A stretch of DNA of 64,000 bases from Strigamia acuminata. Taxonomy: Eukaryota > Arthropoda > Chilopoda > Geophilomorpha > Linotaeniidae. Below the pieces are notes generated by a model that had not been told where the DNA came from, ran no database searches, and saw only the letters and a program-made list of their open reading frames with translations. The stretch spans positions 28,505,118-28,569,117 of the forward strand of contig OX442314.1 in the NCBI GenBank assembly GCA_949358305.1. Reading direction: 5' to 3'. This document shows positions 9,882-62,026 of this stretch, one piece after another; position 1 is the first letter of the stretch; every line of letters begins with the position of its first letter. A program made the translations under genes and the position numbers.

Positions 9882-12249
9882 TCATTCAATATGTTGCCTA
9901 TGCAGACTGATTACCATCTTGCAAGTAATCGGTTTAGCCATTACGTTCCCAGCAGTAGGATATACTGAAATTGCAATGATTACAAGACTCAAACTCATTT
10001 CTTTTGACGCCATTTTACTTACTCGTTTCACATTTCACACCAACCGGATCCTAAAATTAAAATTTAAAGATCAAAATTAAAAAATTAAAATTAAAATAAA
10101 ACACTAATTCTGTTTTTACACGTTAGATGTTAGAGGTGCTTGCGTTTTTGTTTTGCGCTGTTAAAAAACACTTAAAACAGAAAATCTTTATAAAAAAAAC
10201 ACAAAAAAAAACGTGTTAAATCAAAATAAATCGTGTAAAAACGGAATTGTGTGTATTTTAATATCGCAACCAACAAAAATCATTTCTTGCGACTTCTGCT
10301 CGTGCGAGTGCCAGTCAATGTGAATTTCCGGTTTGTCCATCAAATCCACGAGCGGAACATGAAACTCTGCTCGAACACCCTAAAACCAGAAAAATTAAAT
10401 TAAATTAAATTAAATTAATTGCATCAAAACCTTTATATCGTCCAGAACAAAAACAGCTAGTGGTGACATTAATAGCTTTCTAAAAGCCTTCGAATTTTTT
10501 GAATGTATGTGAAACGTGTCATTAATCTCGATTGTTTCTGCCCACAGCTTTGGCGGCGTCGAATGTGACGAAAGGAAGTCTTTGTGCTCATTCATCTTGA
10601 TCATTTCGACCGCGACCGAGGTTTGGAAGTCGGAATCACCTTTGGGACTTGACGGGACCTCAGTAGTCGAAAGATTCGAAATATTCGAAGTTGGTGGGTC
10701 GGTTGTGTGCCACGTGTATTCGACGCGATAAGTAACGACCTGTTTGGAATATTCTGCTTTTTTGTGAAGCTGTAACGTGAAAAAGGCAATTTTTTAAACC
10801 TAGAAAATTGGATTAATTGTCAATTATTATTATTACCACAGTTATGTCGCTGGCATGATGAACGAAAGGGTGGATTGTCAGTTGGAGCACCTTAACCTTT
10901 ATAGTGGCTGCGGTGGCTTCGAATTTTCCTCCTTTCATCAACCAGTTGGCGTAAAGCAGCACTTCCTTGCGGTAAATTGGTGACTCGTCCAAATTCACCA
11001 GGTGTTGACAGTTGGAGATAACATACCCTCGATAACCACTAACCAACTACGAAAAATGATGGTGGATGAGGTAAATTCAGGTAGATATGCTTTAGTATAG
11101 TCGCAGAGCAACTAAATGAAGATGAATGAAGATGAATAACATATATTCCAACATAAAACATACGGTCCACACTAATGAAGCGACATTTCATCGGACCGAC
11201 AATTCATTGGCCAAAATCTCATCGGGCGCCAATTGCGATGTGGTGCAACATTCGTCCGCTCGATGAAGTGTCGCCCTCATTCAGTACAGTTTTCATTCCT
11301 TACCGAACATGGGTTTCCAAGTAGCAATAAAATTCGAAGACTAGATATAGTTTTGATAAGAGCAATTAAATTCGGTAAATTATCCAACTTATTATAGCTC
11401 AAATCCAAATGAATTAAATGTGGAAAGACACGTTGCAACGACTTTTCCGAGGATGAAATACTTGAAATAGCTGTTGTTGAAGAAATAAAGAAACATAATA
11501 GAAAGAATTAGGCTTATCAAGAGTAGAGGGAGTTGTTACATGCTGTACTAATGTAAAATTAGCGCCCGCATGATGCACAAGTCCCGTTACCCCGCGGTAC
11601 TTCCGGTAAAAGCTGCCTATACATTTTAACAAATTGTAGGCCAAACCCAAATATTTAAGATGATGTAACTTTCTTGAAAAAATCTCATCCATTGAAGTAA
11701 ATTGGTTATATCCAAGTTCTAGAATTTCTGAATTTCCCGGTATGTTCACATCGGACAGTGAGTCTATGTCACTGCAAGACAGTATTACTGTCTTCAACTT
11801 GCCAAAATCCTTCTTTTGTAACTAAAGTTTAACAAAAAATATGATAATTTAATAATGGTTAATTTTACTGTTCCAGCTCTTTGACATTTTACCCTTTTGC
11901 TAGCATATTTCAAAATTCCCACGTCTTTATCAGATTTTTCTTTTGACTTCTTCTCGACAAAAGAAGAAGCTTTCTTTAAATTGAATATTGAATATTGTTA
12001 TTAAAAAAAATAAAAAAATAAATAAATAAACAAACAAAGATACACTTTCCAGCTGATTTTTTTTACTATGATATTGTACTTACATCCTTTAGTGTAACTT
12101 TCTTTAGGTTGAATATTGTTATTTAAAAGTAAATAAATAAATAGATATATAAGTATTAAAGATGCACTTCCCAACTGATTTTTTACTAAAATTTTATACT
12201 TAACAGCAGACACAGGTTCAACCTTTCGTGGAGCCTTCTTAGTAAACAT
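9882..12249 (-). CDS. LRRC43-like protein, tandem copy B (418 aa, most diverged)
   Basis: Exons: 12205-12249, 11893-11973, 11623-11821, 11304-11470, 10837-11046, 10431-10769, 10275-10379, 10023-10050, 9882-9964. The total is 1257 nt with no internal stop. This copy differs most. Exon 3 is one codon shorter, exon 4 has three extra codons (SIS), exon 6 is nine codons longer and rich in Ser/Arg/Pro, and the PxWAD motif is replaced by LWAETIEIND. The last exon keeps KPITCKMVIS but ends HRQHIE. The intact frame despite this divergence argues for a maintained protein, not a pseudogene. The intron 1 region has duplicated TTTCTTTAGGTTGAATATTG blocks, so the exon 2 boundary is less sure. Confidence 0.68.
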
Positions 12250-12591: not shown

Positions 12592-15531
12592 TCACTCATA
12601 AGTTTGTCTGTAGATTGCAAGCGCAATTTTGCAAGTAATCGGATTTGATTTAGTGTCGTTGCCCTGATTTCCATCATGAACTGAAATTATTTATATTGAT
12701 TAAAACACTCAAAAATTAACGTTTTTGACGCCATTTTAACTGTACCAACCGAACAGAAAGATACTTACTCGTAATATATTTCTTGGCATCCTCATCCTAA
12801 AATTTACATTCATCAATTAAACTTTAAAAAAAATTCAATTGATTGATATTTAATTTAATGATAATTTTATGAACCAAACCACAATGTTTTCTTGAGATTT
12901 AGGCCTCGGTATGTTAGTCCAATTAACACAAATTTCCGGTTGGTCGACCAATTCATTAAGCGGAATATGAAACTCTGCTCGCAGACCCTAAAAACCAAAA
13001 AATATGAAAAACGTAAAAACAACTCACTAATTGCATCGAAACCTTTGAATCATCCAGAATACAAACAGCCAGCGAAGTGGAACAGAATCTTTTGAAAGCT
13101 CTGCAATTTCTTGCGTGTATAATAAACACGTCGTTAAATTCGATGGGATCGGCCCACGGTAGTTGCCGCGTAGAATGCGACGAAACTTCCATCGTCGTTT
13201 TGCTTCCCGTGAGCGAGTTTAAGCCAGAACTATTTGTGGGACTTAGTGAAAGTTCTGCACCAACTGCCGATAATTCTTTTTCGTCCATTTGCCAGGTGTA
13301 TTTAACGCGATAAGAAACGCTACTTTTGGCCGCAACTTGCTTCTTGGGAATAAGCTATAATACGCAAAAAATGCAATTTTTACGTTTGTTTACTGAAAAT
13401 ATATCCAAAGTGAGCAAAAAATCTGGACACACACATTTCATTTTTCAACTGTATGAAAGTATAAATTGTATAACCACGAACACAATAAACCTACATAGGG
13501 TAAATCACATTCGAAACTTGGAAATTCGGTGTCTACGATTGTTATTTACCCTATGCACCATGAATGGTGCTGTGGAACCGAGTATTTATTCATCGGTGAC
13601 ACTTTTTAACATTTTTTGAATAGTCTGCTGGCCGAAAAACGGCAATATCTTGAAAACGGCTTGTCGAAACAATTTGAAACTTGGAAATTGGGTGTCTACG
13701 AGTGTTATTTATTCTATGCACCATGAATGGTGCTGTGGAACCGAGTATTTTACGTTTGGGACATGTTTTACATTTTAACAATAGGCTCCGTCCTTCCCCT
13801 AGATGGGCGAATCGAATGTTCTGCCAAGGTTATTCTACCGCATGATTAGAATTGATATATCTTCAGTCATTTTCGAGTAGAAAGTGTGTCCAGACTTTTG
13901 ACTCGCCGTGTAGTGTATGTGATTATTACAGCTGCGGTAGTTCGTTTTGCTGTTTGATCGGGTTGGATGGACAGTTGGATGACGTTAACCTTAACACCTG
14001 CTGCAATTGCTTCAAATTTGCCTCCTTTCAGCATCCAGGTGTTGTACAGTAGCATTTCCTTACGGTAAACCGCAATTTCATCCAAATTCACCAAATGTTG
14101 ACAGTTGGATAGAACAAAACCACGATAACCACTAACAAACTATAAAAAAAATAAAAAATTTCACCGGTAGTGCAGATTACCGGTAACTGTGCATTGTGTT
14201 TTAGGTGTTTGTGTTTTGTGATGTCACTTCCTCGAGTGTTTGTGTTTATTGGCTTAAAAACACACCAAAACAGTGTCGACGGTGAAAATTGAACGAAAAA
14301 TCCAAATTAAGATAAATAAAGGCTTCTATAAAAATGTCAGGGTCTATTAAGAGTTGGCATGAAGAAATCTACCAACATTGAGCATAATTTTCATTACTTA
14401 CCATAAGTGGGTTTCCCATCAGCCATAAAATTCGGAGATTAGCTATAGTTTTCACAAGAGGGACTAAAGCAGATAAATTATCCAAGTCATTAAAGCTCAA
14501 ATCCAAATGTATTAAATTCGGAAATTCACGTTGCAACGACTTTCCCGCGAATGAAATAGCTGTTGAAGGATGAAAAAAAAATTATACATAGAATTATAGA
14601 GACTAAGTTGGCACATACGACTAGGCGCATTCATGAAGTCATGTTTTCAAATTGCTGTTTCGTCTCAATGACTTCATGAATTCGTCCATCGTCGCTATTT
14701 TTCCGGCAGTTCCGTATTCAAATAATATTTTTTTGTGTTTTGCTGCTGTAAAAATAGCGCAAGTTCCCATCATTGTGTGGTACTTCCGGTAAAAGATGCT
14801 TATACATTTTATCAGATTGTAAGCCAAGCCTAAATATTTCAGACTCATTAGTTTGCTTTCAAGAATCTCATCCAATGAAGTAAATTGATTATATCCAAGT
14901 TCTAGAATTTCTACTGTCGCCGGTACTAAAGTAGCAGGTAGAGAGTCAATGTCGCTACAAGACAGTATTACTGTCTTCATCTTATTGGAAAAATCCTTCT
15001 TTGAAAACTGGAATTTTAAAATAAAACGTTAAAAGAAATTTCAACTAAGTGTAGTAAATCCTGTATTTGTTCGATTAATTACATTTACAACATGCTGTGT
15101 TTGTATTCCAAAGGCATTTCCACTGTTACCAGTCAAAATGCCTTTGTAATCCTAACACAGCGTTTGTAAATGTCATTTTAAACAGTAACTGCATTCAAAA
15201 ATTAAAATAACAATTTTTTTGATGTCATTTTTGGTTTAAAATTGAAGTAAAACACAAAATATTTTAGTTTTTGAGTGCAGCTAGTGATAAACAATCGAAA
15301 TAGAAGTATTAAATCGGTAGACTAACTCCTTCTTCTGTAATTGCCATTTTACCTTTTTGCTAGCATATTTCAAATCAGAATCTTTTTCTGTAGACTTTTT
15401 TGGTAATTCAATTTTCTTGTTCTCCTATTTAAAAAAAAATACATTTGTAACTGCTTATTTACTAAACATGGTATTGTATTCACAGGTGCAAGAGATTGAA
15501 TCTTTTTCGTATACCGGTACTTCTCATTCAT
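12592..15531 (-). CDS. LRRC43-like leucine-rich repeat protein, tandem copy A (408 aa)
   Basis: First gene of the array in transcription order. Exons: 15484-15531, 15353-15424, 14806-15007, 14402-14559, 13930-14139, 13043-13354, 12880-12987, 12769-12796, 12592-12680 (1227 nt, phases match). A Lys-rich N-terminus (about residues 1-45) is followed by four to five leucine-rich repeats (about 50-160; VEILELGYNQF, LKYLGLAYNLIK, LIHLDLSFNDLDNL, LRILWLMGNPL). After these come SGYRG, a long tail with HSTRQLPWADPIEF, and a C-terminal NPITCKIALAIYRQ strand. The order GNPL-YRG, then HST-PWA, then the C-terminal strand is what I recall of vertebrate LRRC43, a poorly characterised protein expressed with motile cilia; this family is shorter. 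Function is not established. Confidence 0.72.
13406..13912. mobile_element. Small mariner-type MITE of intron 5, copy A, opened by a later insertion
   Basis: The outer ends (CAAAGTGAGCAAAAAATCTGGACACACAC and GTGTGTCCAGACTTTTGACTCGCCGTG) match the intact element at 7808-7939 of copy C. About 390 bp of foreign sequence (about 13450-13845) lies inside. Confidence 0.55.
13508..13785. repeat. Two-unit direct repeat inside the intron 5 insertion
   Basis: A unit containing GAAACTTGGAAATT(C/G)GGTGTCTACGA and CACCATGAATGGTGCTGTGG occurs twice (about 13512-13580 and 13675-13750) with the same order of motifs. CACCATGAATGGTG is itself a palindrome-like motif. Origin unknown. Confidence 0.6.
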
Positions 15532-29303: not shown

Positions 29304-29957
29304 TTTTTCTTGCTAAATATATTTTTAGGCATTGTTGATTAATTTGTAGTTGTTTAATTAATTATTAAGTGTTGTTTGTTGTTTTAATCCAGCTAAATTA
29401 AATATAAACTCGTTTATTTTACATCGTAGACGATTTGGTTTGTTCAATGAGGTATCATGCTGTGGGTAGTGTGTACGATTTCTAGCGTCAGAACGATGCC
29501 TCGCTTTGTGATGTATCATCACGTTTTATTAATCAGAGAAAAAAAAATTAAATTTGTGGTTAAAACTCGAGGGTAAAAGTTGAACTATTTGTGAGCAAAT
29601 TGAATAAATAAAAAAATTTAATAGTAAAAATCATGTTTTATTCGAAAGGAGCAATGAACTTCAATAAACTCTATACAATATTTTTTATTCTCATCTCCCT
29701 GTAATCAGGTGTAGCAAGAAATAAAAAAAATAAAAATAAAAAACAAAAATTTGTCTCATTAAAATAAAAAAAAATTTATTTTCAATAACATAATATCATC
29801 ATAAATCTTCCATTTATTTTTCCAAGAACTTATTTACAATCAGCCATTTTGTAGTCAGCGCCTTCTGATGCCAACACATCCAACTCCACGCCAAAACAAG
29901 CCGTAACCATGACCACGCTGCCAAAACAAACAAACAAAGCCGACTTTTCGTTGAAAT

Positions 29958-32900
29958 ATGCTCGTCCCGATATTTACCCTCAACTTAAACCACCGTTTTC
30001 TGACCAATCGTGTGGCCATCGGTGTGTACGATGGAAAACACCCGTGTTTAACGGCCGCAACAACCGCCGATAAAGTGCTGATCCACTCGCCGCACATGAG
30101 AGGAACGTTCTTGGGCGGAAGAGTGTTCAGTCACGCGGTCGCATCCGACATCTCGCTGCTGAATATCAACCAATCTGTGAGTTCGTTGGCTACTGGTAAT
30201 TTGGTCCCGAATGGATCCAATGACACGCTAGTAGTCGGCACTCCAAACAGTGTGTTGGCATACGATGTTTTGAACAATTCGGATCTGTTTTATAAAGAGG
30301 TTCGGTTATAACACTGTAGTTTCGTTTAAATCGAAACTTGGTTAAATTTTAAGGGAAATTTATTTTTATAGTTACCGGACGGTGCAAGTTCGGTTGTTAT
30401 AGGAGATCTTGGTTCTTCCCAAACCCCAACGGTGGTTATTGGCGGGAATTGCTCGTTGCAAGGGTTTAATAGTGAAGGAAAAGATGTTTTTTGGACTGTA
30501 AGTTTGGAGTTTGATTTTAATTTATTTTCTTTAATAAAAAATAAAAAATAAAAATATTTTTTAGGTAACTGGGGATAATGTATCTGCCTTGTCATTGGTT
30601 GATGTGGATGAAGATGGGGAATCTGAGGTTGAATATAATTTTTACCAAAATTTATGATGAAGTTGAATAGAAATAATTTCTTTTCCAGTTGTTGGTTGGT
30701 TCTGAGGATTTTGATGTCAGGATATTCAAAAATGAAGAAATTATAGCAGAAATGACTGAAACTGAGGTAAAACAAAAAGTGAATAATAGCCCTGACTTAA
30801 ATAGTAGCCTAGTGTGGGACACTACAGCCAGTGCGACAGCCATAAACGCAGTGTTGTGTGCGTTACTAGAATTTGGTAGCTAGTTACCGTTACCGTTACT
30901 TGGCAAAAAAAGTAACTAGTTACCAACCGTTACCGTTACATTTTTTATACCTACGTTACCGTTACCGTTACTTGGCAAAAAAAGTAACTAGTTACCAACC
31001 GTTACTGTTACATTTTTTATACCTACGTTACCGTTATCGTTATCGTTACCGTTACGTTACCGTTACATTTGCGAAAATTTCAGGCAGTCACGGCTTTGTG
31101 TTTGTTGCAAGGAAGTAAATTTGGTTACGCCTTAGCCAATGGTACAGTTGGCGTATATGATAAAGTAACAAGAAACTGGAGAATAAAAGTAATGTGAGAA
31201 ATCAAAATGTTGTACTTCACAATTTTGCAATATTTATTTACCTGTAAATGTTTTGTTTCAAGTCAAAAAATCATGCCACCAGCATTTTGGGTTTTGATCT
31301 GGACTCTGATGGAATAGCTGAATTGGTTACTGGATGGAGTAATGGAAAGGTAAGAATAAAAAAATATACATGATAAAAATGGAATAAATTTTATTTCTTT
31401 CATCCAGATGGATGTCAGGAGTGATCAATCTGGTGAAGTGATTTTTAAGGACAATTTTAGTCAATCCATTGCTGGACTTGTTCAAGCTGATTATAGACTT
31501 GATGGGAAAACAGAACTGATTTGCTGTTCAGTAGATGGAGAAGGTTTGATTTTAGTTTTGAATATAAATTTAAAAAATATTGCACTTGGAGAGCAATTTT
31601 CTCTCTTTCAATTTAGTTCGAGGGTTTTTACCGGCTTCTGGTGAAATTCAGCAAAGCATGTTAGATTCCAATGTCGAGCAAGACACAATAAGAGACTTGG
31701 TCTTAAAGAAAAATGTAAGCAATCAAATTGCTTAATGTTGCAACCTCAAAGTTTAATTTCACTTTTTCTTTGTAGAATCTCATGATGGAATTGCAAAACT
31801 ATATGGATAGTTCGAGATTGTCTGATTCAATTCAAAGCAGCAGCACAAGTTTTGACACCAGGCTTGGAATGATTCCTGTAATTAAAAAAAACAAAAACAT
31901 TAAAACAGCGTTGAGAGCAAATACCGAACTGTAGCACAAAATTACACTCGCAGTACGGCATTACCACCAATGCAAAATAAAGTACAAAAAAATAATAAAA
32001 TGAAAAAATTGTCATAGCCATAATGTTCAGCCAGGTACCGGGAGAAAATATCTATTTGGCAGTTTTGCATTAGCAGTAGTGTAGTGCAATTAATCACACT
32101 GGCCTTGCAGTTAAACGAGTTTTGTTGTTTAAATGTCGTGCGCATGCCCACTGCGGGTATTGTATGAAGTGCTATGGTTTTACAAATCTCTTATCCCTTA
32201 TGCAATTGCTAAGACCTAAAAATAATAAATAATTATTATTCAAAAGGCTGATACACAACTTCAAGTTGCAATCTCAGTTTACTCGGACACAACTCACGGT
32301 GACCCTCATGTCCAGCTTGTGCTTGAAACTTCAAACGACACACTTATAAAGAGTGTGATTGTGTTTGCTGAAGGAATATTTGAAGGAGAAAGTAAAGTGG
32401 TGTAAGTTGTGTGGATGAAGTGTTTACATGTTGAGATGTTCAAACTTTTGTGTTTTGACAGACATCCAAGAGAAAATGTTCTAAGCAACAGAATTATAGT
32501 TCCAATTATTCCATCCAAAGATGTTCCAGTGGACATCCACCTCAAAGTGTTGATTGGTCACAAAGGAAGGTGAATCAAATCCTTTTCATAGTTCTGTTTA
32601 TTTGTAAGAATAATTTTTAAGAATTAAATTGCAGCAACAATTTCCACGTGTTTGAAGTCAGCAGGCAATTGCCAAGGTTCTCCCTGTATGTAATATGCAA
32701 GGATACAGACGTAGCCAAACCTAATGGATTTGTGCATTTTGTTATAAATGACAGGGTTCAAAGGGTTAGTTTCCTTAATTGCTAAAAACTAATTATAAAA
32801 ATATATTTTTTTTTAATTGTGACCACATTTTCAGGTTTTATTGTGGTTGAATCAAAGTTTCCTCCTGATGGAAGAAATTGAGTTACCGGAAACCAATATT

Positions 32901-43660: not shown

Positions 43661-46097
43661 TCACCAGTTTGTGAATTTTTTAAATTCCGTTTTTTCGATT
43701 GTTTTTTTCCGTTTCGGCGCGGGTTCCGTATCACTGGTTCGAGATGTCGAAGTACTGAGAAAGGAGAAAAAAATTAAATTTATGGATTTTTTTATGTTAA
43801 AAACGAATAAATATATTAAATAATATAAGTGTTTACCTCGGTGCCGAATTGATGTATTTGCCGACACCCTTTTTATACGTTTTTAGCTCATCTTTCCTCG
43901 CATCGTCTTCGGATTTCACTTTTTGCTCCACTTGAGCCGCCATTTTCTTTCCCTCTTCTTCTCGGTCTTTCGCCAACTAATTCAAAGAAAAAAAAGAAAA
44001 AAACGATAAACCTTGAAGGATAAATTCCCCAAATTAAAAAAAAAAATACCTGATCTTCGACTTCTTGGAACGGGTCGACAAAAACAGTCACTTTTTCAAT
44101 TTTAATATCGACCTGTAAAGAAAAATAAATAAAAATCTCAAATTTTTCCAAAGAAAAAATACCAAACAAACGAACTTTAGGTTTATCTTTTCCAGACACT
44201 TCGGCCTTTTCCATCGAATCCAACGTATCGAATCCACCAACAACACTAAAAAAAAAATAAAATCAAAATTAAAACCCAAATAATTAATAAAAATAAAAAG
44301 GAAATCCAAACCTTCCGAAAACCGTGTGTTTTCTATCCAAATGCGGACAAGCCCGATAAGTGAAAAAACTAAAAACAAAAAATAAAAATAATAATTACAA
44401 ATAAAATTTAAAAAACAAAAAAATTATCCGTTACAATTGCGATTTATTAGTGTTGGGTCCCGAATTGGCCATGCTTAAAACGCCACGTCCGTTATGCTTC
44501 AAATTCGTCTTAAATTCGTCTTTAAACGGCCGATTCCAGACGGAATCGCCGCCTTTTCCCGTCCCCGTCGGATCCCCGCCTTGCACCATAAAATGTCGAA
44601 TCGAACGATGAAAAATCGAGCCGTCGTAATAACCATTTTGACACAATTTCATGAAATTCTCGCACGTCAGCGGCACCAAATCGCAATGCAGCTCCAAATT
44701 TAACATCCCGAGCGTCGTATGCAACCTTACGTAACCCTTTTTCTTAACTCTCTCGTACCGTACTGCCCTATCCGACAAAACAGCTGCAAAAAACAAAACA
44801 AAAAAATATTTTACAACGTCAAAATGTAAGAAATTCAATTTATATGGTTATACCGTATTCGATTTTCGTTTTGGGTTCCATTACGGTCGACGTAAAACCC
44901 GCTGCGACCGTTCCCGTCGAATAATGCGCCTAAAATCAAAAATAAAATTTTTTTTTTTGCATTTTGTATTTGATTTTCAATTAATTTTACGGCGTTGTAT
45001 TTATCGGCTATTTTGGTCGGTTCGGGTTCCTTTTTCTCCTCCGGTTTGTACGATTTTTGCAGCTCATCCAATATGGTCGCGGTTTCCATATTGATCGATT
45101 TGAGAAAGTATTTTGGGTCCTTTCGCGCTTTTATTTCATCTGTTAGTTGAATTTCGGTATTAATTACGGTATATTTTTATATTTCTTGATATTTTTTTTT
45201 GTTTTTGACCTTCGTTATCGACCGATAAATTGTTTTTCAAGTAATGGAATTTGGCCAAGTTGAATTTCTCCAAATGTGACGGATCTTGCAAGATTATGAC
45301 GTCGTCTCGGACGAATGGACTGTCGTCGATTAAATCTCGGTAGGTTTTGGGCTTCAAATTCAATTGTTCAACGGCCTAAAATTTAAGGAATAAAACAATA
45401 AAAGAAAAAAAATTCGAATTTTGTGACAAATCGATAAAACCTCGTATGAGAAAACATTGCCGGTCGTTTTAATCGCAACGATGTGAGAATTATTATTAAA
45501 AATCTTGTACAGAACGGGGCAGTGGAATTCCCCTTCGCTATTTTTGTGGAAACTCAAACGAATTAACGATTTCATATCCAATGGCTGAAAAATATAAATT
45601 TTTAATAAATTTTTTTTAATGAAAAATTTCAATTTTGTCAATTTTTACCTTTCCGGTGATGGGATTGGTTGAAAATTTTTTTAAAAACGGGAGTATATTC
45701 CTTGAATTTATAACAAAAAAATATAAATTACTAATAATTAAATTTTAAATGAACTAAATAATATATACATGAAGTCGAATATGTGTCCTTCGGGTGAACA
45801 TAGCGGATTTTCGAACGGTTGTAACGATAAACTGCAGTGATCGAACGGTAAACGACGGAAATCGGCTTCACCGACGGGTCGATCTAGAAAATAATTTATT
45901 TATTCATTTTATTTTATTTTATTTTATTTATTTATTTCTTCATATTTCTTACCTGGTTTTTTGCCTCCGTATAATGTCGTCCATTCCGTGCATGTCAGGT
46001 ACCTATGAATCATTAAAAATGTATTGTATTAAATCTTTAGTGTTGTTCGATATTTGTTTCGTTACATCTTATCCTTCTGATGCTGTCTTTTCCCCAT
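43661..46097 (-). CDS. PPIL2: PPIL2, U-box cyclophilin (518 aa)
   Basis: Exons: 46066-46097, 45953-46002, 45769-45883, 45649-45700, 45441-45584, 45210-45375, 44991-45139, 44854-44929, 44435-44783, 44312-44368, 44176-44245, 44050-44112, 43837-43976, 43661-43754 (1557 nt; human PPIL2 is 520 aa as I recall). It starts MGKRQHQKDKM. The U-box (about 38-110) reads FDHCSLSLQPFENPLCSPEG and NILPFLKKFSTNPITGK. A linker with HLEKFNLAKFHYLKNN follows. The cyclophilin domain (about 275-435) has GYVRLHTTLGMLNLELHC, FHRSIRHFMVQGGDPTGTG and MANSGPNTNKSQF. The position equivalent to the catalytic Arg of CypA is kept in FHRSI, but the drug-binding Trp is His (ACPHLDRKHTVFG), typical of weakly cyclosporin-binding family members. 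Nuclear, spliceosome-associated, with E3 ligase activity through the U-box in its orthologues. It ends KKFTNW. Confidence 0.96.
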
Positions 46098-47056
46098 AGT
46101 TATAGTTTAGTGACAAAACCAAAGGATCTATCGCTTGTGTTTACAACATAGAATATCGTTTACAAGACGGAAGACACAATGCGCCGCGCCGAGGCAGTGA
46201 GTGGCATTATATTCGTAATGGCGAGATTTCATATTCTCGATGCCAGCTGAGTGGAGAGGTAAGACCGAGACGAGACCGAGGGCACAGTCCGAGGGTAAGA
46301 CTAAAAAAATTAATTTTTTGTTTTTTGTTAAAAATTTACAATTTTTGTGTCTAAAAAGCCTATTTTTTGTTGAAAACTCTCCGTTTTTTTTTTGCGTCAA
46401 AATAACACACCACCAACTTGAATATGGGCGGAGCCAATCGGCGACTCAACTCCCTGGTGGTGGCGATAGAGATTACACTAGCAGACAACGTAATATAGTG
46501 GTTTTGAATATTTGATGTTATGTGTTATGTTTTGTCAATATTTGCGTGACAATCGCTTAAGATGTAATTTTTCTGAAGAATTTTTAGGCGAAAAAATAAG
46601 CAATTGTTTCCTGCATTCATTTTTGTTTTCATCACTTTAAAAATGTCAAAATTGAGGGGCATTATTACTCTGCCATAAGTATGAAAAGTGCTATTTTGCA
46701 CAAGAAAAGTGTCATTTTGCACAATAAAAATTTATTTTGCACAATAAAAGTGCCATTATGCACATGAAAAATGTCATATTGCACATGAAAAGTGCCATTT
46801 TACACATAAAAAGTGCCATTTTACAATAAAATGTGCCATTTTACAATAAAATGTGCCATTTTACAATAAAATGTGCCATTTTACAATAAAATGTGCCATT
46901 TTACAATAAAATGTGCCATTTTACAATAAAATGTGCCATTTTACAATAAAATGTGCCATTTTACAATAAAATGTGCCATTTTACACATGAAAAGTGCCGT
47001 ATTGCACACCTAGATACATACAGACAGAGGTAATTATTAATTTTGGGGATTGGAGA
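46098..47056. other. Intergenic region upstream of PPIL2
   Basis: It includes a short GC-richer stretch near 46180-46290, perhaps the PPIL2 promoter or first non-coding exon. The rest is AT-rich and ends in the minisatellite at 46680-47000. No coding exon found. Confidence 0.5.
46680..47000. repeat. 20-bp minisatellite
   Basis: The unit AAATGTGCCATTTTACAATA is repeated about eight times perfectly (about 46822-46985). It is preceded by decayed variants (GTGCCATTTTGCACATGAAA type) back to about 46685. It lies just downstream of the DEG/ENaC stop codon. Confidence 0.95.
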
Positions 47057-50000
47057 TTACTTTTTACATGTTACAAACAACAATGCAATGCCATTCTGTA
47101 ATAGCTCCGGTATTACCAGCAACGACAAGCCAAAAAACAAGCCAAAACTATTTCCCACATCACAGAACAGAGCGTTTAGGCTGTATACATAATGTTCTTC
47201 AAATTTCTCTATTAAATTATTTACGGGCATAATTGCAGCAACTGACACAATACTTGTGTTAGGTTGTTGAAAATAAACACGTGTTTGGTATATATTCTCT
47301 GTGCAGGAAGGTTGACAGTAACATTCTTTCTTTATGTCGGTCTTCAGAGATAAATGAATAAACGTGGACAAAGCTTCTTTGGCTTCTTCGGCAGAGCTGC
47401 ATGCGTTGGTCAAATTGTTCTCGGTGAAAGGTAATCTAGTTGAATACAGATTTTTAGTCATTTAGTAATTAGATGAATGTTTCAATTTCAATGAACTTTG
47501 GCATGAGATGAGTGACTTACTTGCACTTGATTGATTGAAATTTACTTCGAAAGCATTCGTTTCGGCATCGGACATGCTCTTCTCGTGCGATGCAGGCACG
47601 TGATTTTAAATTAAGTGATATTTTCTGCAGCAATTAAAAATATAACATAAATCAATAAGTTTTCTCGAGCCTAAAATAATTGCAATTTTATGACTGCATC
47701 ATGGAAGTAGTAAAATTACTTTTCTTTTCTGTATTCAAGTGATGTAATACGTTGAGTTTTTCTTACCGGCAATTTTAAAGTAAAAATACAAAAAACCCAA
47801 AACATCTATAGTACTATACTCTAGTTCAATCAAAAAGAGTCCTTCCTCTCATTGGCTGAGCCTCATTACTCCTAACTCTAAACCACAGTATAGACTGTAT
47901 AGACTGGGGTTGCACCGAATACCATAAAGGCCGAATACCGAATATTCGGTATTCGGCCGAATAACCGAATAAAAATTTAAAAAACAAATCTACATTGTCA
48001 AAAGCGATTTCCAAGCCAATTAAAGCAATCCCCAGGTTAAACATGCTATTTTCATGCCGAAAACCCAATTCCCACTGTTGAAAAAAGCAATTACCACATC
48101 AAAAAACCAATTTTTGCAACCAAAAAAGCAAACGCCATGTTTCACGTCAAAAATGCAGTTTTCACAAAAAAATTGTAAGTTTTTCAGTCGAAATGCAATT
48201 TTTATCTAAAAATGTAAAGTTATCTGGTAAAATGCATTTTATAAGATGAAAATTATTAGTACACTCACACCTAAGAAGACAACTGTCTAGGAGAAAGCAC
48301 TCTTTTGGATTGAACAAGAAAGGATCACAAAAGGATACTGCATGGTACATTGTACGGGCTTCGCATTCAATTTCAAAATGGCCACCACATAAGTTAGATA
48401 AGGGACAAATAAACTTCCAATTTCTCTAATGCTTGCAGATGAAGCATCCATAACCAAAACTAAGCAAATTTTCTAATTTCACTACAATGCATACATACAT
48501 TAACAAATGTAAATTGCAATATTGAAGAAGTAGACTGCATGAGGTTCCGCTGACTCGTAAGAATAGATTCTATCTTCGCTCCAGATGGCCGCACATACAA
48601 CTGAGGAGATAAAAATATCGATCAGTTTCAAATCTCAACAAACATCAGAAAATGTTGACAGAGATGCTAATAAACAGTGCACGTGCACCTACCTGCCACA
48701 AGCCATGAGAACATGTGATGTCTTTATTTTTTACAAAGCTTAACAAAACTGTTGATCCGGATCCAGCAAACTTCATTGGCTCTAAAATGAATTAATAACT
48801 CACGTAATTTTAATTTTGATTTTTATTTAAATTGTTCTAGTATACTTAGTTCGAACTCGTTGCATATTCCCGAATGCATGTTTATATCATCCTTACTGAA
48901 GGTATCGTCTTTTTTCCTTAACCCAGCTCCCTGGTGTAAAAGATTAAATAATTTAACGTCAAAAATAAACGAGACAACAAGAAAAAAGAACTACTTTCAG
49001 TACTGCATTCACGGCGTATTCATCAAATCTCGGTTTCTGGTCTTTCCAAACCTTTTCGAGTGATGGTTTTCTATCACTCTTCATTAGATCAATAAAATGA
49101 ACTTCGCACTGGTGTTTTTTAATCTGCTCTGCATATTTTTTCGTGTACGCTGCCGTTAAAAGGCCTTCAGTGCAGGCAATTACATTAGGCATGTAAATTG
49201 TGTCGTTTTCGTGAACTGTAACGACTGTTTTGGTCGGTTCGCTGCAGTAAAACTGGATTTTAGTTGCGACGACATACGATGCAATGACAGCACCTGCAAA
49301 CAGAACGGTGTATTGCACGTAACGAGTGGTTTTTGATTTATACGCAATAATTTTGTTGGTTTTTCTCTCCAGCTTTCCGTGAATCTTCACTATTTTGCTC
49401 GCAATTCTTTTCGTCGACGGCCTTTTTTTAAGGTTTTCAAATAGCCGCTTAGCAAGCCATCGAATTACAGCCAATAAGGACAACAAGGACAAGCCCAATG
49501 CAAATCCCAAATTTCCACCAAAGTCCACCAAAAGTGCAATTTTGTCGTAGACATATTTTTCAGTCAGGACGACGTATGTCGCATCAGTTTGCTTCAGTTT
49601 GGTAATTACTATATTTTCATCCGTTAATTTCTCCACAACGAGGTGGTAATGATATGCGTTTTTTGAACAGGGTCGCAAGCAACCACAATCTAATGTTGCC
49701 AGTGTGGATAATTCCTGTTTGTACGCAGCCTCGTGAGTTTTAGATACAATGGCCTTATTTTTCACGGTACTGCAATCACGAACTGCATCGTTAAAAGGCA
49801 TGTAGGGTAATCTGAAATTTAAAGACATATTTAAAGTCAATAAACTCAATATTGATTGAAAAACAGATAGGCACTTCCTCTTTTTTCTGATTTTCTTTAC
49901 TTAATGACAATTTTTTAACGTGATTATGATTACTTGTTGGTATACAGAGTAATACACGATTAAGAAAATGTTGACTAACCGACATTCCGGCTTTAGGATT

Positions 50001-51524
50001 CTAGCCAAACAATCTTCGTAACATTTGATGTTTAGCTCTTCGTCTGGGCTGCAAAACGGGTAGTTTGATGGTAAAAAATTGTACTGGAAATGAATAATTA
50101 TTTCAATACGTTTATACCGGTAGGGACATTTAAACCAAAATCTGGTGATCCTGTTTATATCTCACTTGTATGATGAAATACCAAAAAGCACTTACCTGTC
50201 GTAAATGAAAATCCACAAACAACACGTTACCAACTTGTGTTGGTATTGCATATCCATATGGTTGCAAAGGATTTATAATAGCAATCTATTATGGAGATAA
50301 TTTAAAATTTAAAGATATGGTATACTATTAAATAAATGACTACAGTTTTGTCAACGGAGGGAGTTAGTGGGTGTTATTACTCGTTTCATTCCACCCTGTA
50401 ATCACCAGAAAAAAAAAACAGTTTTTTCACACAAGAGAAACAGACGGAGCATGCATGAGAAGCGAGTTTTGCAAAGCATTATCGTCTGATTTGTAAGTAT
50501 GCCATCTTGGGGTTCAACCCCAAACATAAGGTTTGGCAAATTCTCCATTGGGATTGGATTTCTGATCAGGTCAGTGGAATGAATGGACTCTAGTGATCTG
50601 ACTAATCTGTTTAGAAAAGAGTCAATAAGATAAAAAGTAATAATACGGTTATAAGTGGAGTTCTGCAGTTTCCATTTCGACGTAAACTAAATTCGACTGA
50701 GGATCCTTCACTCATGGATAAACCTAAACCAAAATGGAATGATTTAAATAAAAAAAAATGTACTCTACTTGAACAGATATTGCTTACTAGTCGTCAATAC
50801 TAAGGTAGCTCCTGTGCTCGTGTCCTTTTCACTAATTTCTACATTGGAATCAGATGCTATCAAAACACTGCCATTACGACGCACTTGAGACAGAATTTTG
50901 TTGTACTGCAACAATAATCAACTCTGTTAATCAAATAATCAAATTACAATTGAAATAAAATCTATTTCTATTCTACATCAATCACATCGATAAAATATAA
51001 TTTTCTTAGCTTACTTTTTTAACTCTTACAAGCTCAACATTTCCCATTAAACTCGAATCGCTCCACAGCCGAGTGTAGTTGTTAATGTCGGTATTTAAAT
51101 TGATTAGTCCTCTCACTGCACTTCCACAATGTTTAAATTCCGAATTGCTGTCACCTTCAAAATATAGTGGCCACAAAGCGGTCAAAGCTGCAGTGTCGAA
51201 CCCTGTTGCAGAGAAACCGAGTATTTTTAAGTGTGTTGTCTCTTTAAATTCAATGTTAACTTCAACCGGTCCAGACATGTAATAGCGTAGTCTGTCATAC
51301 GTTTGGTAACAGCAAATGCCCGAGCAAAAACCGACTGCAATCAGCCACAGAATTCGAACAGAAAGTGATCTTCGTTTGTCCAAAATCTTGTTGAGTATCG
51401 GTAGGGAATTCTTCTCGATTGAATTTGCAATTTGTTCTTTACATAAATACCTAATGCGATGTTTTCGTTTGTTGACTTTTCGATTTCTCGCGAGTGCCAT
51501 ACTGCGAGTGTAGTTGTTGTCCAT
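47057..51524 (-). CDS. Tandem (two-subunit) DEG/ENaC channel in one reading frame (839 aa)
   Basis: Exons: 51015-51524, 50788-50905, 50647-50723, 50196-50285, 49980-50083, 48995-49811, 48846-48930, 48693-48781, 48505-48600, 48271-48425, 47057-47435 (2520 nt, all phases match). Subunit 1 spans residues 1 to about 425: TM1 about 55-78 (LSVRILWLIAVGFCSGICCY), Cys-rich extracellular domain, TM2 about 388-415 with GLS selectivity filter (406-408, in GGNLGFALGLSLLS). Without any stop, exon 6 runs through a basic linker carrying IHG (about 443-445, the N-terminal HG motif) into subunit 2: TM1 about 466-487 (YTVLFAGAVIASYVVATKIQ), extracellular domain with CYCQPSC, TM2 about 797-825 with GLS (816-818). 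Both subunits share the exon pattern ...CLLR|LPF / ...PECR|LPY. Because DEG/ENaC ends are cytosolic, fusion is topologically simple. Sodium or proton-gated conductance is inferred from family only. Confidence 0.88.
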
Positions 51525-52916
51525 TTACGCACACTGAAAATGTATTTTAAAAAACTCAATAACGTTTTTCAATTTATTTTCAGAGCAAGCCGCACTATAT
51601 AATTATCACTGACGTGACGAGGCCTAATTTAAATTTAAATTAAATAATAAAATAAAAAAAATTATTAATATATATAATTATTATTTTTAACGTTTTTCAC
51701 AGAGAAAATTGTTAATTGAATTTTTAATTTGAAATGTTTAGGAAAAGTCGATCACTAACTAAATTTTCTACTTGCAATGTCGCTAAAATTAAGTGACTTG
51801 ATGTAACCGGTTTTTGGTCACGTGCAACCAAGTTCCCGAATGGCCTGCAAATCTTGATAAGATGAAGCTTTTTAAGATTTCGATAAGCACCCCCTTATGC
51901 TTCACTGCAGCATAATCTGAAATTATATCAAAGAGACAAACACTTGTTGTGATCCGGGAATTTATTTGAATAAATACTTACCTTTTATCCAAATAACTCA
52001 CAATCGAGATGCCTCTGTGGGGTTTAAACTCTAATAGCCTGTAAAAATGTGTCTATACTCTGGCCATGTGTAAGTTTGGCCTAACTCCGAGCCTTTTCTC
52101 TGGTGTAGTGATACAAGAAAATAGATCCAAACACCAGGATTACTGGTATCCATTTTGTTTCAGACTTAACAATCAATAATAAATTTCAAAATTGTTTTGG
52201 TTTCTGGAAGAAGCAAGCAATAAACTATGAACTATTTTTCCTGGTGGCAGCACAGAGTGAGTTATGAGGCTCGGAGTTAGGCCAAACTTACACATGGCCA
52301 GAGTATAGGGGTGTTGAAAAATAAGGAATACAGTTTTGATTGAACAAAAATAGTAAATTGTGCTTTATTTGTGGAAATTACAAATGATTTAGAAAATATA
52401 ATATATTATTACTAAAATATTAGAGGTTAAATTTAAGACTAAAAAAGGAAGAATTAGAAATGAAATGTGAAACGATGTTTGTTGCACACAAAATGGCGAG
52501 GCGGACTCGCCTGGAAAAATTTCCCTGCACGTACAATGGCAGCGACCGCAAGCTCCGGAGGGACTCCGCGGTGGCTTACAGTCGTTTACGATGGTACACG
52601 GCAAGTGTGGGTGCTGTGACAGTAACGGTGAGTCCTAGATAGTTCAACGGGACTCACGATAACCGACAGTGAGCGGTCTCTTGGGCGTTACTCGAGATTT
52701 GTACAAGTACGTGTAGCAGACAGTGACTGTTACACACGAGCGCAAATGGAAAATCAGTGGAAACAGCAAAGTCTCAACTCACCAAACGGTACACTATCAA
52801 TACTTGAAGTTCTGGGAGATTCAAAGCAGTGATGTTGTGTGTTGTTGGTGTGAAGTCAAGAGTGAGCAAAACCGCCAAACTTTGGGGTTTTATTCACTCT
52901 CTGGTCCTGCGCACTA
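51525..52916. other. Intergenic, repeat-containing region upstream of the DEG/ENaC gene
   Basis: The first 200 bp should hold the DEG/ENaC promoter. A 40-bp inverted-repeat element follows (52054-52307). The stretch 52440-52760 has higher GC and short ORFs on both strands, with no recognisable domain. Confidence 0.45.
52054..52307. mobile_element. MITE with perfect 40-bp terminal inverted repeats
   Basis: 52054-52093 (TATACTCTGGCCATGTGTAA...) is the exact reverse complement of 52268-52307. The interior is 174 bp of AT-rich non-coding DNA. Perfect ends suggest recent movement. A TA duplication would be contained in the TATA-like termini. Confidence 0.85.
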
Positions 52917-53272
52917 ACAAGGGGAGAGCACCAATAAGCTATCACAGATTGTTGTAATATTAAACAAGAAGGATTGTTATATCATGCTGAATGAGACCCT
53001 AAAATAATTTCATTCCATAAACAGCCAACAATGCAAACAATGAGCTGAAAGTTGGCACTATTTTGTCTGTGTATACATCAAATCTGAGCAATCAGGCCTA
53101 GTGTATGAATACTGTAAACAACAGTTGCTAGGTAAAAAATAGTTCCAAGATCCAAGTTCAATTTTACCATTTGAGATTCAATGATGTCATTTCCTCTTTT
53201 GATATCACATGACATATGACATCAGAACTTTGTTCAACAACATGACTGTCTTCATGAAGACAATAATAGTTT

Positions 53273-53344
53273 GTAGTGGTGGTTCAGTGGTTAAGGCAAT
53301 GGACCAGGAATCTTTCCACACAGGTTCAAATCCTGTTGGGTGTG
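53273..53344 (+). repeat. tRNA-Ser-like (SINE-head-like) sequence, left arm
   Basis: GTAGTGGTGGTTCAGTGGTTAAGG followed by GGACCAGGAATC and a perfect T arm (ACAGG-TTCAAAT-CCTGT). The A box TGGTTCAGTGG (53280-53290) and B box GGTTCAAATCC (53323-53333) fit pol III promoters. The body resembles tRNA-Ser but lacks the long variable arm and has a degraded anticodon stem and acceptor 3' half, so it is tRNA-derived, not a working tRNA. Confidence 0.65.
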
Positions 53345-53516
53345 AAAATTTTTACATTTATTTTTTGTTAAATTTTAGCAGTTATTTTAATTTTTGTAAT
53401 TTTATATTTGTTAAAAAATTAAAATTAACCAAATTAAAATTTTCTGAAAACAAATATAAAATTACAAACATTAAAATAACTGCTAAAATTTAACAAAAAA
53501 TAAATGTAAAAATTTT

Positions 53517-60032: not shown

Positions 60033-61814
60033 TTATTTTATCGAAAATGAAGCGATAATGGTTTCAATTTCCGATGTAAACGCAGCAACATGTTTTTCGA
60101 TAATTGTTGCGTCTGTGTGGTCTAGATCATCATCATTGTTGAACCAATGGCGCAATTCTACGACGTTATACGGCAGCATTCGACGACCATCCTTGTCCAT
60201 TAGAATGACAGTATTGGGCCCAGTTAATTTATGGATTACGTAAACGCCTTCCGTCCTCTGTCGAAGTCCTGCAGCAAACTGTCGGTCCGCTGATGACAAT
60301 TGTCGATTTTTGATAGACACAAAATCGCCCGGTTTGAAATCATGTGGTCTTCTTTTTCGATCAAACCAACGTTTATGTCTAATCTGAGCTTTTTGTAAAT
60401 TTGCAGTGGCATTATTTCGCAATTCTCTCATCAATTCATGCGTCTCTCGCGCTCGTACTGGCGGTAGTGGCTGTCCATCGTCGGTGTCTGAATCGAAATC
60501 ACCTGGATAACGCGCCTCTTGTCCCGTCACCATTTGATAAGGAGAATATTGAAGCGAAGCTTGATATGCTGAGTTGATTGCTAGCACAAAATATCTAATG
60601 TGAATGTCCCAGCGCACATGCTCTTCAATATAAGCTAAAATGCAGTTTTTTAATGCTTGGTTTAGTCTCTCGGCCAAGTTCCCTTGTGGATGATAAACAG
60701 CCGTGTAGCGATTGATGGCGCCAAAACTCTGACATGCAGCCTGGAATTCCATTGATCGGAAAGCTGGCGCATTATCACTGATGATAACTTTTGGAAATGC
60801 CCATCGCTGAATAAATCCTTGCAATTGTTTGATTGTTGTTTTCCAGTCAGATGTCTCAGTCAATCTCACATCCAACCATCGACTGGCGGCATCCACAATT
60901 ACTAATGCGTAACAATGTCCTCCAATCGATCGGGGTTTTTTACCATAATAATCGATGTAAATTGTGTGAAACAAATGTCGTGGTTTGGCCATGATCATTG
61001 GTCCATATGGAAGGCGATTCAACGGCTTGGCTCGTTGACATGGTTCACATTTTTGAATCCAAAGTAAAACGTCCTCCTTCATTTTAGGCCAATAAACTCG
61101 GGCCCGAAGTCGATGAAGTGTTTTTTCAATTCCTAAATGTCCGCAGCTCGGCGGGTAATGCAGAGCTTTGAAATATTGTTCGCGTAACATTAAAGGCAAA
61201 TAGATTTGTCTTCTACGGCGAATTTTATTTATGTCGATCGGTGGATAACGACACAACATTCCCTTATAAATAGCAAAATCTACGGCACGATACCTGATAC
61301 GCGCTGCTTGTACTTGGTCATTGGGCAAATGTCCTTGATCAAGATATTCGATTAATTCGGAGCTCCACGTGTCCTCGTGTTGTCGACGAATTATTTCGTT
61401 AATTGTTGGTATTAGACGAAAACATTGGTGATCTTGCGGCGCATCATGTGCTTGCTCGGCCTCATCTTCTTCTTCGTCTTGTTGTTCATCAACAATTGGT
61501 CGTCTCGATGCATTTCTTTGAAATTGTGATCGATCTTGACGCACTCGTTGTGGTATAAATCCTGCACGTCCCATCCATGCCGGTCGATAAGTTGTCGAAT
61601 CGTCCGACGAATCCGAATCCGGACCTCCATATCCGTCAAAATTCGGTCGCACAGCTCCGGATGGTCCTGCAGGTGGGCTTAACATATTAGGGGTCGGAAA
61701 TGATGTGGTCGGCACATTTGGTGATGGCAGGGGCAACATTAGAGGTGGCAAGGGTGCAACAGCTCCAGGAGGCGTCGAAACTTGTGCCTGCTGACGTGCC
61801 CTGGCTCGAGTCAA
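60033..61814 (-). CDS. pol: Ty3/gypsy integrase region of pol (about 593 aa ORF)
   Basis: A Pro-rich and acidic linker (first 130 residues) leads into the integrase H2C2 zinc domain (HYPPSCGHLGIEKTLHRL, then CEPCQ). The catalytic core follows, with the three acidic residues in IYIDYYG, ISDNAPAF and NLAERLNQ (D-D-E order), then a C-terminal DNA-binding region (FKPGDFVSIKNRQ). No chromodomain was recognised. The frame begins at a TTG/overlap (61811-61814) and is shifted by one base relative to the preceding linker ORF, so expression needs a -1 shift or reflects a mutation. It ends at TAA 60033-60035. Confidence 0.9.
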   Translation of the reverse strand: MTRARARQQAQVSTPPGAVAPLPPLMLPLPSPNVPTTSFPTPNMLSPPAGPSGAVRPNFDGYGGPDSDSSDDSTTYRPAWMGRAGFIPQRVRQDRSQFQRNASRRPIVDEQQDEEEDEAEQAHDAPQDHQCFRLIPTINEIIRRQHEDTWSSELIEYLDQGHLPNDQVQAARIRYRAVDFAIYKGMLCRYPPIDINKIRRRRQIYLPLMLREQYFKALHYPPSCGHLGIEKTLHRLRARVYWPKMKEDVLLWIQKCEPCQRAKPLNRLPYGPMIMAKPRHLFHTIYIDYYGKKPRSIGGHCYALVIVDAASRWLDVRLTETSDWKTTIKQLQGFIQRWAFPKVIISDNAPAFRSMEFQAACQSFGAINRYTAVYHPQGNLAERLNQALKNCILAYIEEHVRWDIHIRYFVLAINSAYQASLQYSPYQMVTGQEARYPGDFDSDTDDGQPLPPVRARETHELMRELRNNATANLQKAQIRHKRWFDRKRRPHDFKPGDFVSIKNRQLSSADRQFAAGLRQRTEGVYVIHKLTGPNTVILMDKDGRRMLPYNVVELRHWFNNDDDLDHTDATIIEKHVAAFTSEIETIIASFSIK

Positions 61815-62026
61815 TACCTGATAATTTGGTGCGGTCTCTTCTTATTTTTAGAACCTTTTGGCCTGCCCAACTTTGGTTTAACCTGCTGTTGTCGTCCTTG
61901 CGCTCTTGTCATCACAGCTGCGTTATTTCGTTGCTGTGCCGCAGCCAATCCAACTCCAATAATGTTGATTATTGGTAATTTTGGCCAATCATTTGGGTCG
62001 TCAAAATAGGCGATGTAGCATGTTTC
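61811..62026 (-). CDS. pol: Pol linker segment between RNase H and integrase
   Basis: Open frame from the edge of the inserted element (62026) to TGA at 61811-61813. It has YIAYFDDPNDWPKL and a basic AT-hook-like GRPKGSKNKKRP. The motif MTRAQGRQQQ here is echoed as LTRARARQQA at the very start of the integrase ORF, suggesting a small internal duplication at the frame junction. Confidence 0.65.
   Translation of the reverse strand, partial: ETCYIAYFDDPNDWPKLPIINIIGVGLAAAQQRNNAAVMTRAQGRQQQVKPKLGRPKGSKNKKRPHQIIRY

What the first reader, a model, noticed from the sequence alone, without database searches (positions are those of the whole stretch)
47057..51524. A natural tandem concatemer: two DEG/ENaC subunits in one 839-aa reading frame
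Seen directly: exon 48995-49811 is a single open stretch that contains the second membrane helix and GLS filter of subunit 1, a basic cytosolic linker, and the first helix and start of the extracellular domain of subunit 2. There is no stop. There is also no methionine between the last part of TM2 of subunit 1 (about residue 415) and the far side of TM1 of subunit 2 (YMPN, about 508), so a separate second protein cannot start there. All eleven exons join in phase to 2520 nt. DEG/ENaC channels are trimers of single subunits; a covalent dimer cannot form a regular trimer without a third subunit or a dangling repeat, so stoichiometry must differ. I know of no described native fusion of this kind.
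Basis: partly seen in the sequence, partly recalled or inferred. Interest (0 to 1): 0.88.

Follow-up and report, generated by a model that had tools for sequence, protein, structure and literature searches.

The report
Hundreds of paired centipede sodium-channel genes
A centipede genome carries a large family of genes that each encode two sodium-channel subunits joined in one protein, although the known channels of this kind are built from three separate subunits, so how these ones assemble is a new and testable question.

Summary
Window 47057-51524 (minus) is an intact 11-exon gene encoding two complete DEG/ENaC (Pfam ASC) subunits in one frame. Exon 6 (48995-49811) runs from TM2 of subunit 1 through a 41-residue basic linker to TM1 of subunit 2 without a stop.

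It is not a lone oddity or an assembly join. Three seed searches of this genome (Strigamia acuminata, identified from chromosome lengths) gave at least 228 places with such an exon, 218 without a stop. Both halves keep intron phases 0,1,0,0,2. Half-1 and half-2 TM2 domains each form one tree group (half-1 weakly), so one fusion probably preceded the expansion. Spacing in the lists shows two subunits per gene, not three.

Transcripts, currents, stoichiometry and presence in other species are untested. I favour tandem chains giving two of three trimer subunits, with the third from a single-subunit channel, and a sensory role; both are inference. No native fusion of this kind was found in print with the searches run.

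The parts
51015..51524 (-). Exon 1 (510 nt): start Met, N-terminus, TM1 of subunit 1, first part of extracellular domain
   Evidence: aligned in L031; 150 exon-1-like places scored genome-wide
50788..50905 (-). Exon 2 (118 nt), extracellular domain 1
   Evidence: L029, L031
50647..50723 (-). Exon 3 (77 nt), extracellular domain 1
   Evidence: L029, L031
50196..50285 (-). Exon 4 (90 nt), extracellular domain 1
49980..50083 (-). Exon 5 (104 nt), extracellular domain 1; phase-2 intron follows
48995..49811 (-). Exon 6, joint exon (817 nt): end of extracellular domain 1, TM2 of subunit 1, linker, TM1 of subunit 2, start of extracellular domain 2
49454..49525 (-). TM2/pore of subunit 1, residues 396-419, DFGGNLGFALGLS tract
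49319..49441 (-). Cytosolic linker, residues 424-464 (41 aa, 14 K/R, 2 D/E)
49250..49306 (-). TM1 of subunit 2, residues 469-487
48846..48930 (-). Exon 7 (85 nt), extracellular domain 2
48693..48781 (-). Exon 8 (89 nt), extracellular domain 2
48499..48600 (-). Exon 9 (102 nt), extracellular domain 2
47521..47624 (-). Exon 10 (104 nt), extracellular domain 2; phase-2 intron follows, as after exon 5
47057..47435 (-). Exon 11 (379 nt): end of extracellular domain 2, TM2 of subunit 2, short C-terminus, stop
47072..47161 (-). TM2/pore of subunit 2, residues 791-820, DVGNSFGLFFGLS tract (second Gly of GG replaced by Asn)

Best explanation
Shown from sequence: this is one member of a large family of centipede DEG/ENaC genes in which a complete subunit 1 and a complete subunit 2 lie in one open frame, joined by a short basic cytosolic linker inside a single exon; the predicted chain has four membrane helices. 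Inferred history: two neighbouring tandem DEG/ENaC genes fused once by losing the stop and the intergenic stretch, and the fused gene then multiplied. Inferred working: subunits 1 and 2 take neighbouring places in one trimer, as in engineered ASIC concatemers, and the third place is filled by a single-subunit DEG/ENaC. This would fix a 2+1 order with an asymmetric pore (GG in half 1, GN or AN in half 2). Inferred role: sensory, probably chemical, receptor channels, because of the size, array layout and divergence of the family. Step confidences: two-subunit chain 0.95; single fusion origin 0.75; 2+1 assembly 0.45; sensory role 0.6.
For: Gene intact, AG/GT introns, one frame; splice sites kept in the paralogs checked. 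Whole model and each half hit Pfam ASC above cut-off. Both halves hit centipede BRTNaC1 and PDPNaC1 structures. Joint exon at >=228 places on C1, C3, C4, C6, C8, C9, C11 and C50, 218 without stops (compiled in 52). Within 3 kb, exon-1-like matches lie upstream of 71 of 228 joint exons and downstream of 0; exon-11-like matches lie downstream of 55 and upstream of 0. The nearest same-strand joint exons in the list are 5.3 kb apart, so two, not three, subunits per gene. After the TM2 match, half-1 exons stay open 166-212 aa in the seven loci where they were read; half-2 exons stop after 0-34 aa in nine loci (a tenth runs off its locus end); eight other TM2 exons stop after 6-31 aa. Identical intron phases 0,1,0,0,2 in both halves. 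Half-1 one group (support 88/34), half-2 one group (100/92). GG in 31 of 31 half-1, GN/AN in 10 of 10 half-2, GG in 8 of 8 other TM2 domains. Engineered linked ASIC1a chains give working channels (PMC5449180, passages).
Against: No transcript, protein or current was examined. Support that half 1 is one group is weak (88/34), and half 2 does not group beside half 1, so the two partners may already have differed, or the tree is blurred by long branches. dN/dS over the linker is 0.55 among four close copies but 1.22 among six others with few changes (TM2 there 1.08), so selection on the linker itself is not shown. Some copies have odd half-1 pores: GLS reads DLS in L010 and L012, and L022 lacks eight residues including GLS. 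Ten of the 228 joint exons contain stops. A third-subunit partner is not identified. The sensory role is argued from family size and layout only.
Confidence: 0.6

Rival explanations
1. Twin pore: three tandem chains assemble into two linked trimers, one made of the three first halves and one of the three second halves.
For: Needs no partner and uses every half; the two halves have their own consistent pore signatures (GG versus GN/AN), as expected if each lines its own pore; each half matches full-length channels.
Against: Linkers of only 35-52 residues would have to join two side-by-side channels, far apart for some of the three chains (geometry from general knowledge, not modelled).
Confidence: 0.2
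2. Two tandem chains per channel: three of the four halves form the trimer and one hangs free.
For: Known as a possibility for engineered dimeric concatemers of trimeric channels (general knowledge); needs no partner.
Against: A useless fourth half would be expected to decay, yet both halves are kept in diverged copies.
Confidence: 0.15
3. The halves work as separate subunits: internal start, internal splicing or proteolysis within the linker separates them.
For: 23 of 35 paralogous linkers contain a Met; linkers are rich in basic residues that cytosolic proteases could cut.
Against: No stop between the halves in 218 of 228 joint exons; no Met in the window's own linker; no NPG (2A-like skipping) motif in the 35 joint exons read. 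Half 1 alone would need an mRNA ending or splicing inside an exon that is open throughout.
Confidence: 0.12
4. Assembly artefact, or chance open frame joining two genes or pseudogenes.
For: Clusters of near-identical genes can be mis-assembled in principle; ten of 228 joint exons contain stops.
Against: The same joint exon recurs at >=228 places on seven large scaffolds and one small one; gene intact with conserved splice sites; chance of ten diverged linkers all open 5.6e-14.
Confidence: 0.02

Closest known systems
BRTNaC1 and PDPNaC1, DEG/ENaC channels of the centipede Scolopendra (PDB 8ymr, 9jf7)
   Same: Closest solved relatives of both halves; same two-helix subunit plan; PDPNaC1 also lacks the HG motif (PMC12714832, passages)
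   Different: Single-subunit chains of 431 and 421 aa; PDPNaC1 is reported as a homotrimer. Here two subunits form one chain of 824 aa
Engineered ASIC1a concatemers (PMC5449180, passages)
   Same: Subunits joined end to end in one chain
   Different: Man-made, three units per chain; here natural, two units, encoded in one exon across the junction
Expanded single-subunit DEG/ENaC families of arthropods (Drosophila ppk; Tetranychus ENaCs of Ngoc et al. 2016, cited in PMC7738191, passages; the count of 136 genes is recalled)
   Same: DEG/ENaC repertoires with shown or suggested chemosensory roles
   Different: Not described as two-subunit chains in the passages seen; Ngoc et al. was not held and was not read
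Two-pore-domain K+ channels (K2P), recalled, not tested
   Same: Natural duplication and fusion of pore subunits into one chain
   Different: K2P suits a four-fold pore (2 x 2); two units do not divide evenly into a trimer

Membership tests
DEG/ENaC (Pfam PF00858 ASC) | ASC profile above the curated cut-off | tested here: met
   Whole 103.8 bits, half 1 69.5, half 2 46.1, cut-off 23.6
DEG/ENaC (Pfam PF00858 ASC) | Two membrane helices flanking a large extracellular domain, per subunit | tested here: met
   Four hydrophobic segments at 54-72, 401-419, 469-487, 802-820 (hydropathy only)
DEG/ENaC (Pfam PF00858 ASC) | G-x-S tract in TM2 | tested here: met
   GLS in both halves of the window gene; paralogs L010, L012 (DLS) and L022 (tract missing) depart in half 1. 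That GxS is the family filter motif is general knowledge
DEG/ENaC (Pfam PF00858 ASC) | His-Gly motif before TM1 | tested here: inconclusive
   IHG stands in the window's linker but not in many paralogs (IHR, IHE, IHD); half 1 has no HG before TM1 by eye; PDPNaC1 lacks it too
DEG/ENaC (Pfam PF00858 ASC) | Trimeric assembly and amiloride-sensitive cation current | not testable with these tools
   No expression or structure of the complex
Tandem two-subunit DEG/ENaC (family proposed here) | TM2-linker-TM1 in one open exon | tested here: met
Tandem two-subunit DEG/ENaC (family proposed here) | One upstream TM1 exon and one downstream TM2 exon per joint exon, no third unit | tested here: met
   Window gene; polarity 71:0 and 55:0 within 3 kb, of 228 joint exons; smallest same-strand spacing in the list 5.3 kb. 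Both flanks were seen for only 21 of 228 at 3 kb and 44 at 8 kb, since each flank search scored 150 places
Single-subunit DEG/ENaC | Stop soon after TM2 | tested here: not met
   Half 1 runs on without stop into subunit 2

The most novel reading that the evidence does not exclude
A geophilomorph centipede uses a family of more than two hundred natural two-subunit DEG/ENaC chains as a main sensory receptor repertoire. The channels have an obligate stoichiometry unknown in DEG/ENaC: either tandem plus one shared single-subunit partner (an Orco-like co-subunit logic), or three tandems forming twin pores.
Probability: 0.35. Interest if true: 0.93.

Novelty: new variant of a known kind. Interest (0 to 1): 0.83.

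Why it matters
Known DEG/ENaC channels are trimers of separate subunits (general knowledge). A large natural family of covalent pairs makes the question of subunit order and stoichiometry directly testable. It gives natural linkers for channel engineering. It also points to a possibly overlooked receptor expansion in centipedes: the first Strigamia genome paper counted gustatory and ionotropic receptors, and its main text contains none of the terms ENaC, degenerin, pickpocket or sodium channel (PMC4244043, term search of the main text).

Tried and rejected
Assembly artefact, chance open frame and pseudogene were considered and rejected. Three-unit chains were sought: no two same-strand neighbours in the list of 228 joint exons start closer than 5.3 kb; an unlisted, diverged second joint exon would be missed. 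2A-like skipping was sought by the NPG motif: none in 35. A selection test on the linker was weak and mixed. Relatives in the large protein collection: none at E<=0.001 for the whole model (7995 candidates scored) or for half 2 alone (2921 candidates). Since half 2 found no DEG/ENaC at all, the collection probably holds few or no animal proteins, so this says nothing about other animals. The viral, metagenome and bacterial/archaeal contig collections were not searched; no other animal genome was on hand. Rfam gathering search of the window: 0 matches.

Literature searches for a native fusion or an expansion (listings unless said otherwise): 1 paper, a C. elegans DEG/ENaC study; 16 papers, engineered ASIC concatemers among them; 191 papers; the 20 listed concern autologous transplants; the other 171 not seen; 4 papers holding Strigamia and ENaC; 0 papers; 21, 6 and 10 papers; 686 papers, 8 listed. 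Passages were read in PMC7738191, PMC10556566, PMC12714832 and PMC5449180. PMC3583452 was searched for fusion, fused, tandem and the like: 0 (for other terms). PMC9151784: term search gave no DEG/ENaC mention. No native two-subunit DEG/ENaC was found; most subscription papers are not held.

Structure prediction was not run: by my reading of its rules the tool takes contiguous window proteins or loci from certain other tools, and the gene is spliced.

Mistake put right: one search translated minus-strand loci in the wrong orientation; its output was discarded and redone. Rows dropped: of the 20 joint-exon loci, five were left out of the alignment (L013, L020, L023, L026, L027), among them L020, which has one stop; the 20 places fetched were picked from rows without stops. 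Of the 35 aligned, 31 long enough on the TM2 side went into the tree.
Full report
WHAT WAS CHECKED. The region 45500-53500 was read on both strands. On the minus strand the stretch 49900-48959 is open for 313 codons. Inside it the exon 49811-48995 runs from the end of a DEG/ENaC extracellular domain through TM2 (DFGGNLGFALGLS...), a basic stretch, and TM1 of a second unit into a new extracellular domain. I built a gene model of eleven exons with AG/GT at every intron: 2475 nt with stop, 824 aa. In the paralog L031 all eleven exons align with AG/GT at the introns and one open frame (exon 2 is six bases longer), but the first codon is Thr, so that copy must start elsewhere; L029 gave exons 2-11 and L030 exons 4-11. 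Hydropathy gives four membrane segments. The whole chain and each half match Pfam ASC above the cut-off, and each half matches the centipede channels BRTNaC1 and PDPNaC1 among solved structures. No other DEG/ENaC stretch was found in the 64-kb window by comparison with the model.

WHERE IT COMES FROM. The genome held for the window has 237.5 Mb in 157 scaffolds, a first scaffold of 66,985,994 bases, others of 37.79, 19.34, 16.99, 16.15, 14.71, 12.25 and 9.84 Mb, and a 15,068-base scaffold with a COX1 match. TTAGG repeats, the usual arthropod telomere repeat (general knowledge), stand at the start of scaffold 1. This agrees with the published assembly of the geophilomorph centipede Strigamia acuminata: 237.5 Mb, 158 scaffolds, chromosome 1 of 66.99 Mb, mitochondrion of 15.07 kb (PMC10556566, abstract and passages). 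The identification is mine, not given by a tool.

IT IS A FAMILY, NOT ONE GENE. Searching the genome with the joint exon gave 144 matches, of which I count 139 spanning TM2-linker-TM1 in one frame. Two diverged copies used as further seeds found more. Compiled, 228 unique places span TM2 to TM1, 218 without a stop, on C1 (111), C6 (61), C3 (18), C4 (14), C8 (8), C9 (8), C11 (7) and C50 (1). This is a lower bound, because each search scores only its best 140-150 candidates of 1342-1627; it includes recent near-identical copies, and the rows were merged by hand. The 35 joint exons that I aligned are all open, but they were picked from rows without stops, and L020, fetched but left out, has one; 218 of 228 is the fairer figure. 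Ten of the 35 are mutually at most 45% identical, down to 21%; the chance that their linkers would all be open if non-coding is 5.6e-14. Linkers are 35-52 aa, and K+R exceed D+E in 35 of 35.

TWO UNITS, IN ORDER. Matches to exon 1 (TM1 of unit 1) and exon 11 (TM2 of unit 2) were located genome-wide, 150 scored each. Within 3 kb, exon-1-like matches lie upstream of 71 of 228 joint exons and downstream of none; exon-11-like matches lie downstream of 55 and upstream of none; both flanks were found for 21. At 5 kb the wrong-side counts are 7 and 6, and at 8 kb 19 and 26, as neighbouring genes come into range. Same-strand neighbours in the list start at least 5.3 kb apart, so there is no sign of three-unit chains. 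In fetched loci, half-1 TM2 exons stay open for 166-212 aa after the match in seven loci, half-2 TM2 exons stop after 0-34 aa in nine (a tenth runs off its locus end), and eight other TM2 exons (L001-L008, taken as single-subunit, not proven so) stop after 6-31 aa.

HISTORY. The five introns of each half have phases 0,1,0,0,2 in both halves. An AG directly before the [L/F/M]P motif, the acceptor of the phase-2 intron in the window gene, is seen in 17 of 17 joint exons whose match starts there, 8 of 9 half-2 exons and 6 of 8 other TM2 exons. This is what an internal duplication, or a fusion of two neighbouring genes of common descent, would leave, with the last exon of the first gene now joined to the first exon of the second without an intron. 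In a tree of 50 TM2 domains, 31 half-1 domains form one group (weak, 88/34) and 10 half-2 domains one group (100/92). One fusion before the expansion is the simplest reading. Half 2 does not fall beside half 1, and long branches make deeper placing unsure. The second Gly of the pore GG is kept in 31 of 31 half-1 domains and 8 of 8 other TM2 domains, but is Asn in 10 of 10 half-2 domains. The two halves are therefore consistently different.

HOW IT MAY WORK. Shown: the gene encodes both halves in one frame, and many paralogs share the joint exon. Not shown: that the chain is made, reaches the membrane, or conducts. Engineered ASIC1a chains joined end to end work (PMC5449180, passages), so a tandem chain is physically reasonable. 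Because two does not divide three, I think it most likely (0.45) that each tandem chain supplies two neighbouring subunits and a single-subunit DEG/ENaC the third. A twin pore from three chains (0.2) and two chains with one spare half (0.15) remain open. The large, clustered and diverged family suggests a sensory receptor role, as shown or suggested for ENaCs in insects and mites (PMC7738191, passages); PDPNaC1 is expressed in centipede antennal neurons (PMC12714832, passages). This is inference.

NOVELTY. It is a DEG/ENaC by profile and sequence features, in a new arrangement. The searches named in Tried and rejected found no native two-subunit DEG/ENaC in the held library. The Strigamia maritima genome paper does not mention ENaC, degenerin, pickpocket or sodium channel in its main text. 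Whether gene models in other species already show two ASC domains could not be checked; I recall that domain databases list some such models. Verdict: real, a new variant of a known kind, high interest.

WEAK POINTS. No RNA evidence; one genome; the linker dN/dS is 0.55 among four close copies and 1.22 among six others with few changes; some copies have an altered or missing half-1 GLS tract (L010, L012, L022); counts depend on hand-merged, capped lists; the single-fusion reading rests on a weak half-1 node.

Noticed in passing
window 46684-47008: A minisatellite (20-base unit ACAATAAAATGTGCCATTTT, 12.8 copies at 46741-46998) lies just 3' of the gene and recurs at the 3' side of close paralogs L029-L031, suggesting it travelled with the duplications.
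   Followed up: partly
window 60036-61841 minus: Open frame of 602 aa with integrase zinc-binding and rve domains, a retroelement-like coding stretch.
   Followed up: no
window 665-1117, 5841-6176, 8563-8988, 11414-11821, 14639-15028, all minus: Five similar open stretches that share 'EILELGYN.FTS', with a leucine-rich repeat match below the curated cut-off in the one scanned (8566-8988): a local tandem gene array.
   Followed up: no
window 44434-44847 minus and 29955-30308 plus: Cyclophilin-type isomerase fragment and BBS2 N-terminal domain fragment, ordinary animal genes.
   Followed up: no
genome G000, C1 start and elsewhere: The 30-base TTAGG repeat pattern matches 7317 times forward and 11387 times reverse (control, read backwards: 4 and 6); C1 begins with it, and an interstitial match stands at C1:115054.
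   Followed up: no
genome G000 C4:7358317-7376957 minus: A row of eight TM2-type ASC matches spaced about 2-3.7 kb without joint exons in my lists, probably a cluster of single-subunit DEG/ENaC genes beside the tandem family.
   Followed up: partly
L010, L012, L022 (joint exons of paralogs): Half-1 pore tract altered: GLS reads DLS in L010 and L012, and eight residues including GLS are missing in L022, so some copies may have a non-conducting or regulatory first half.
   Followed up: no
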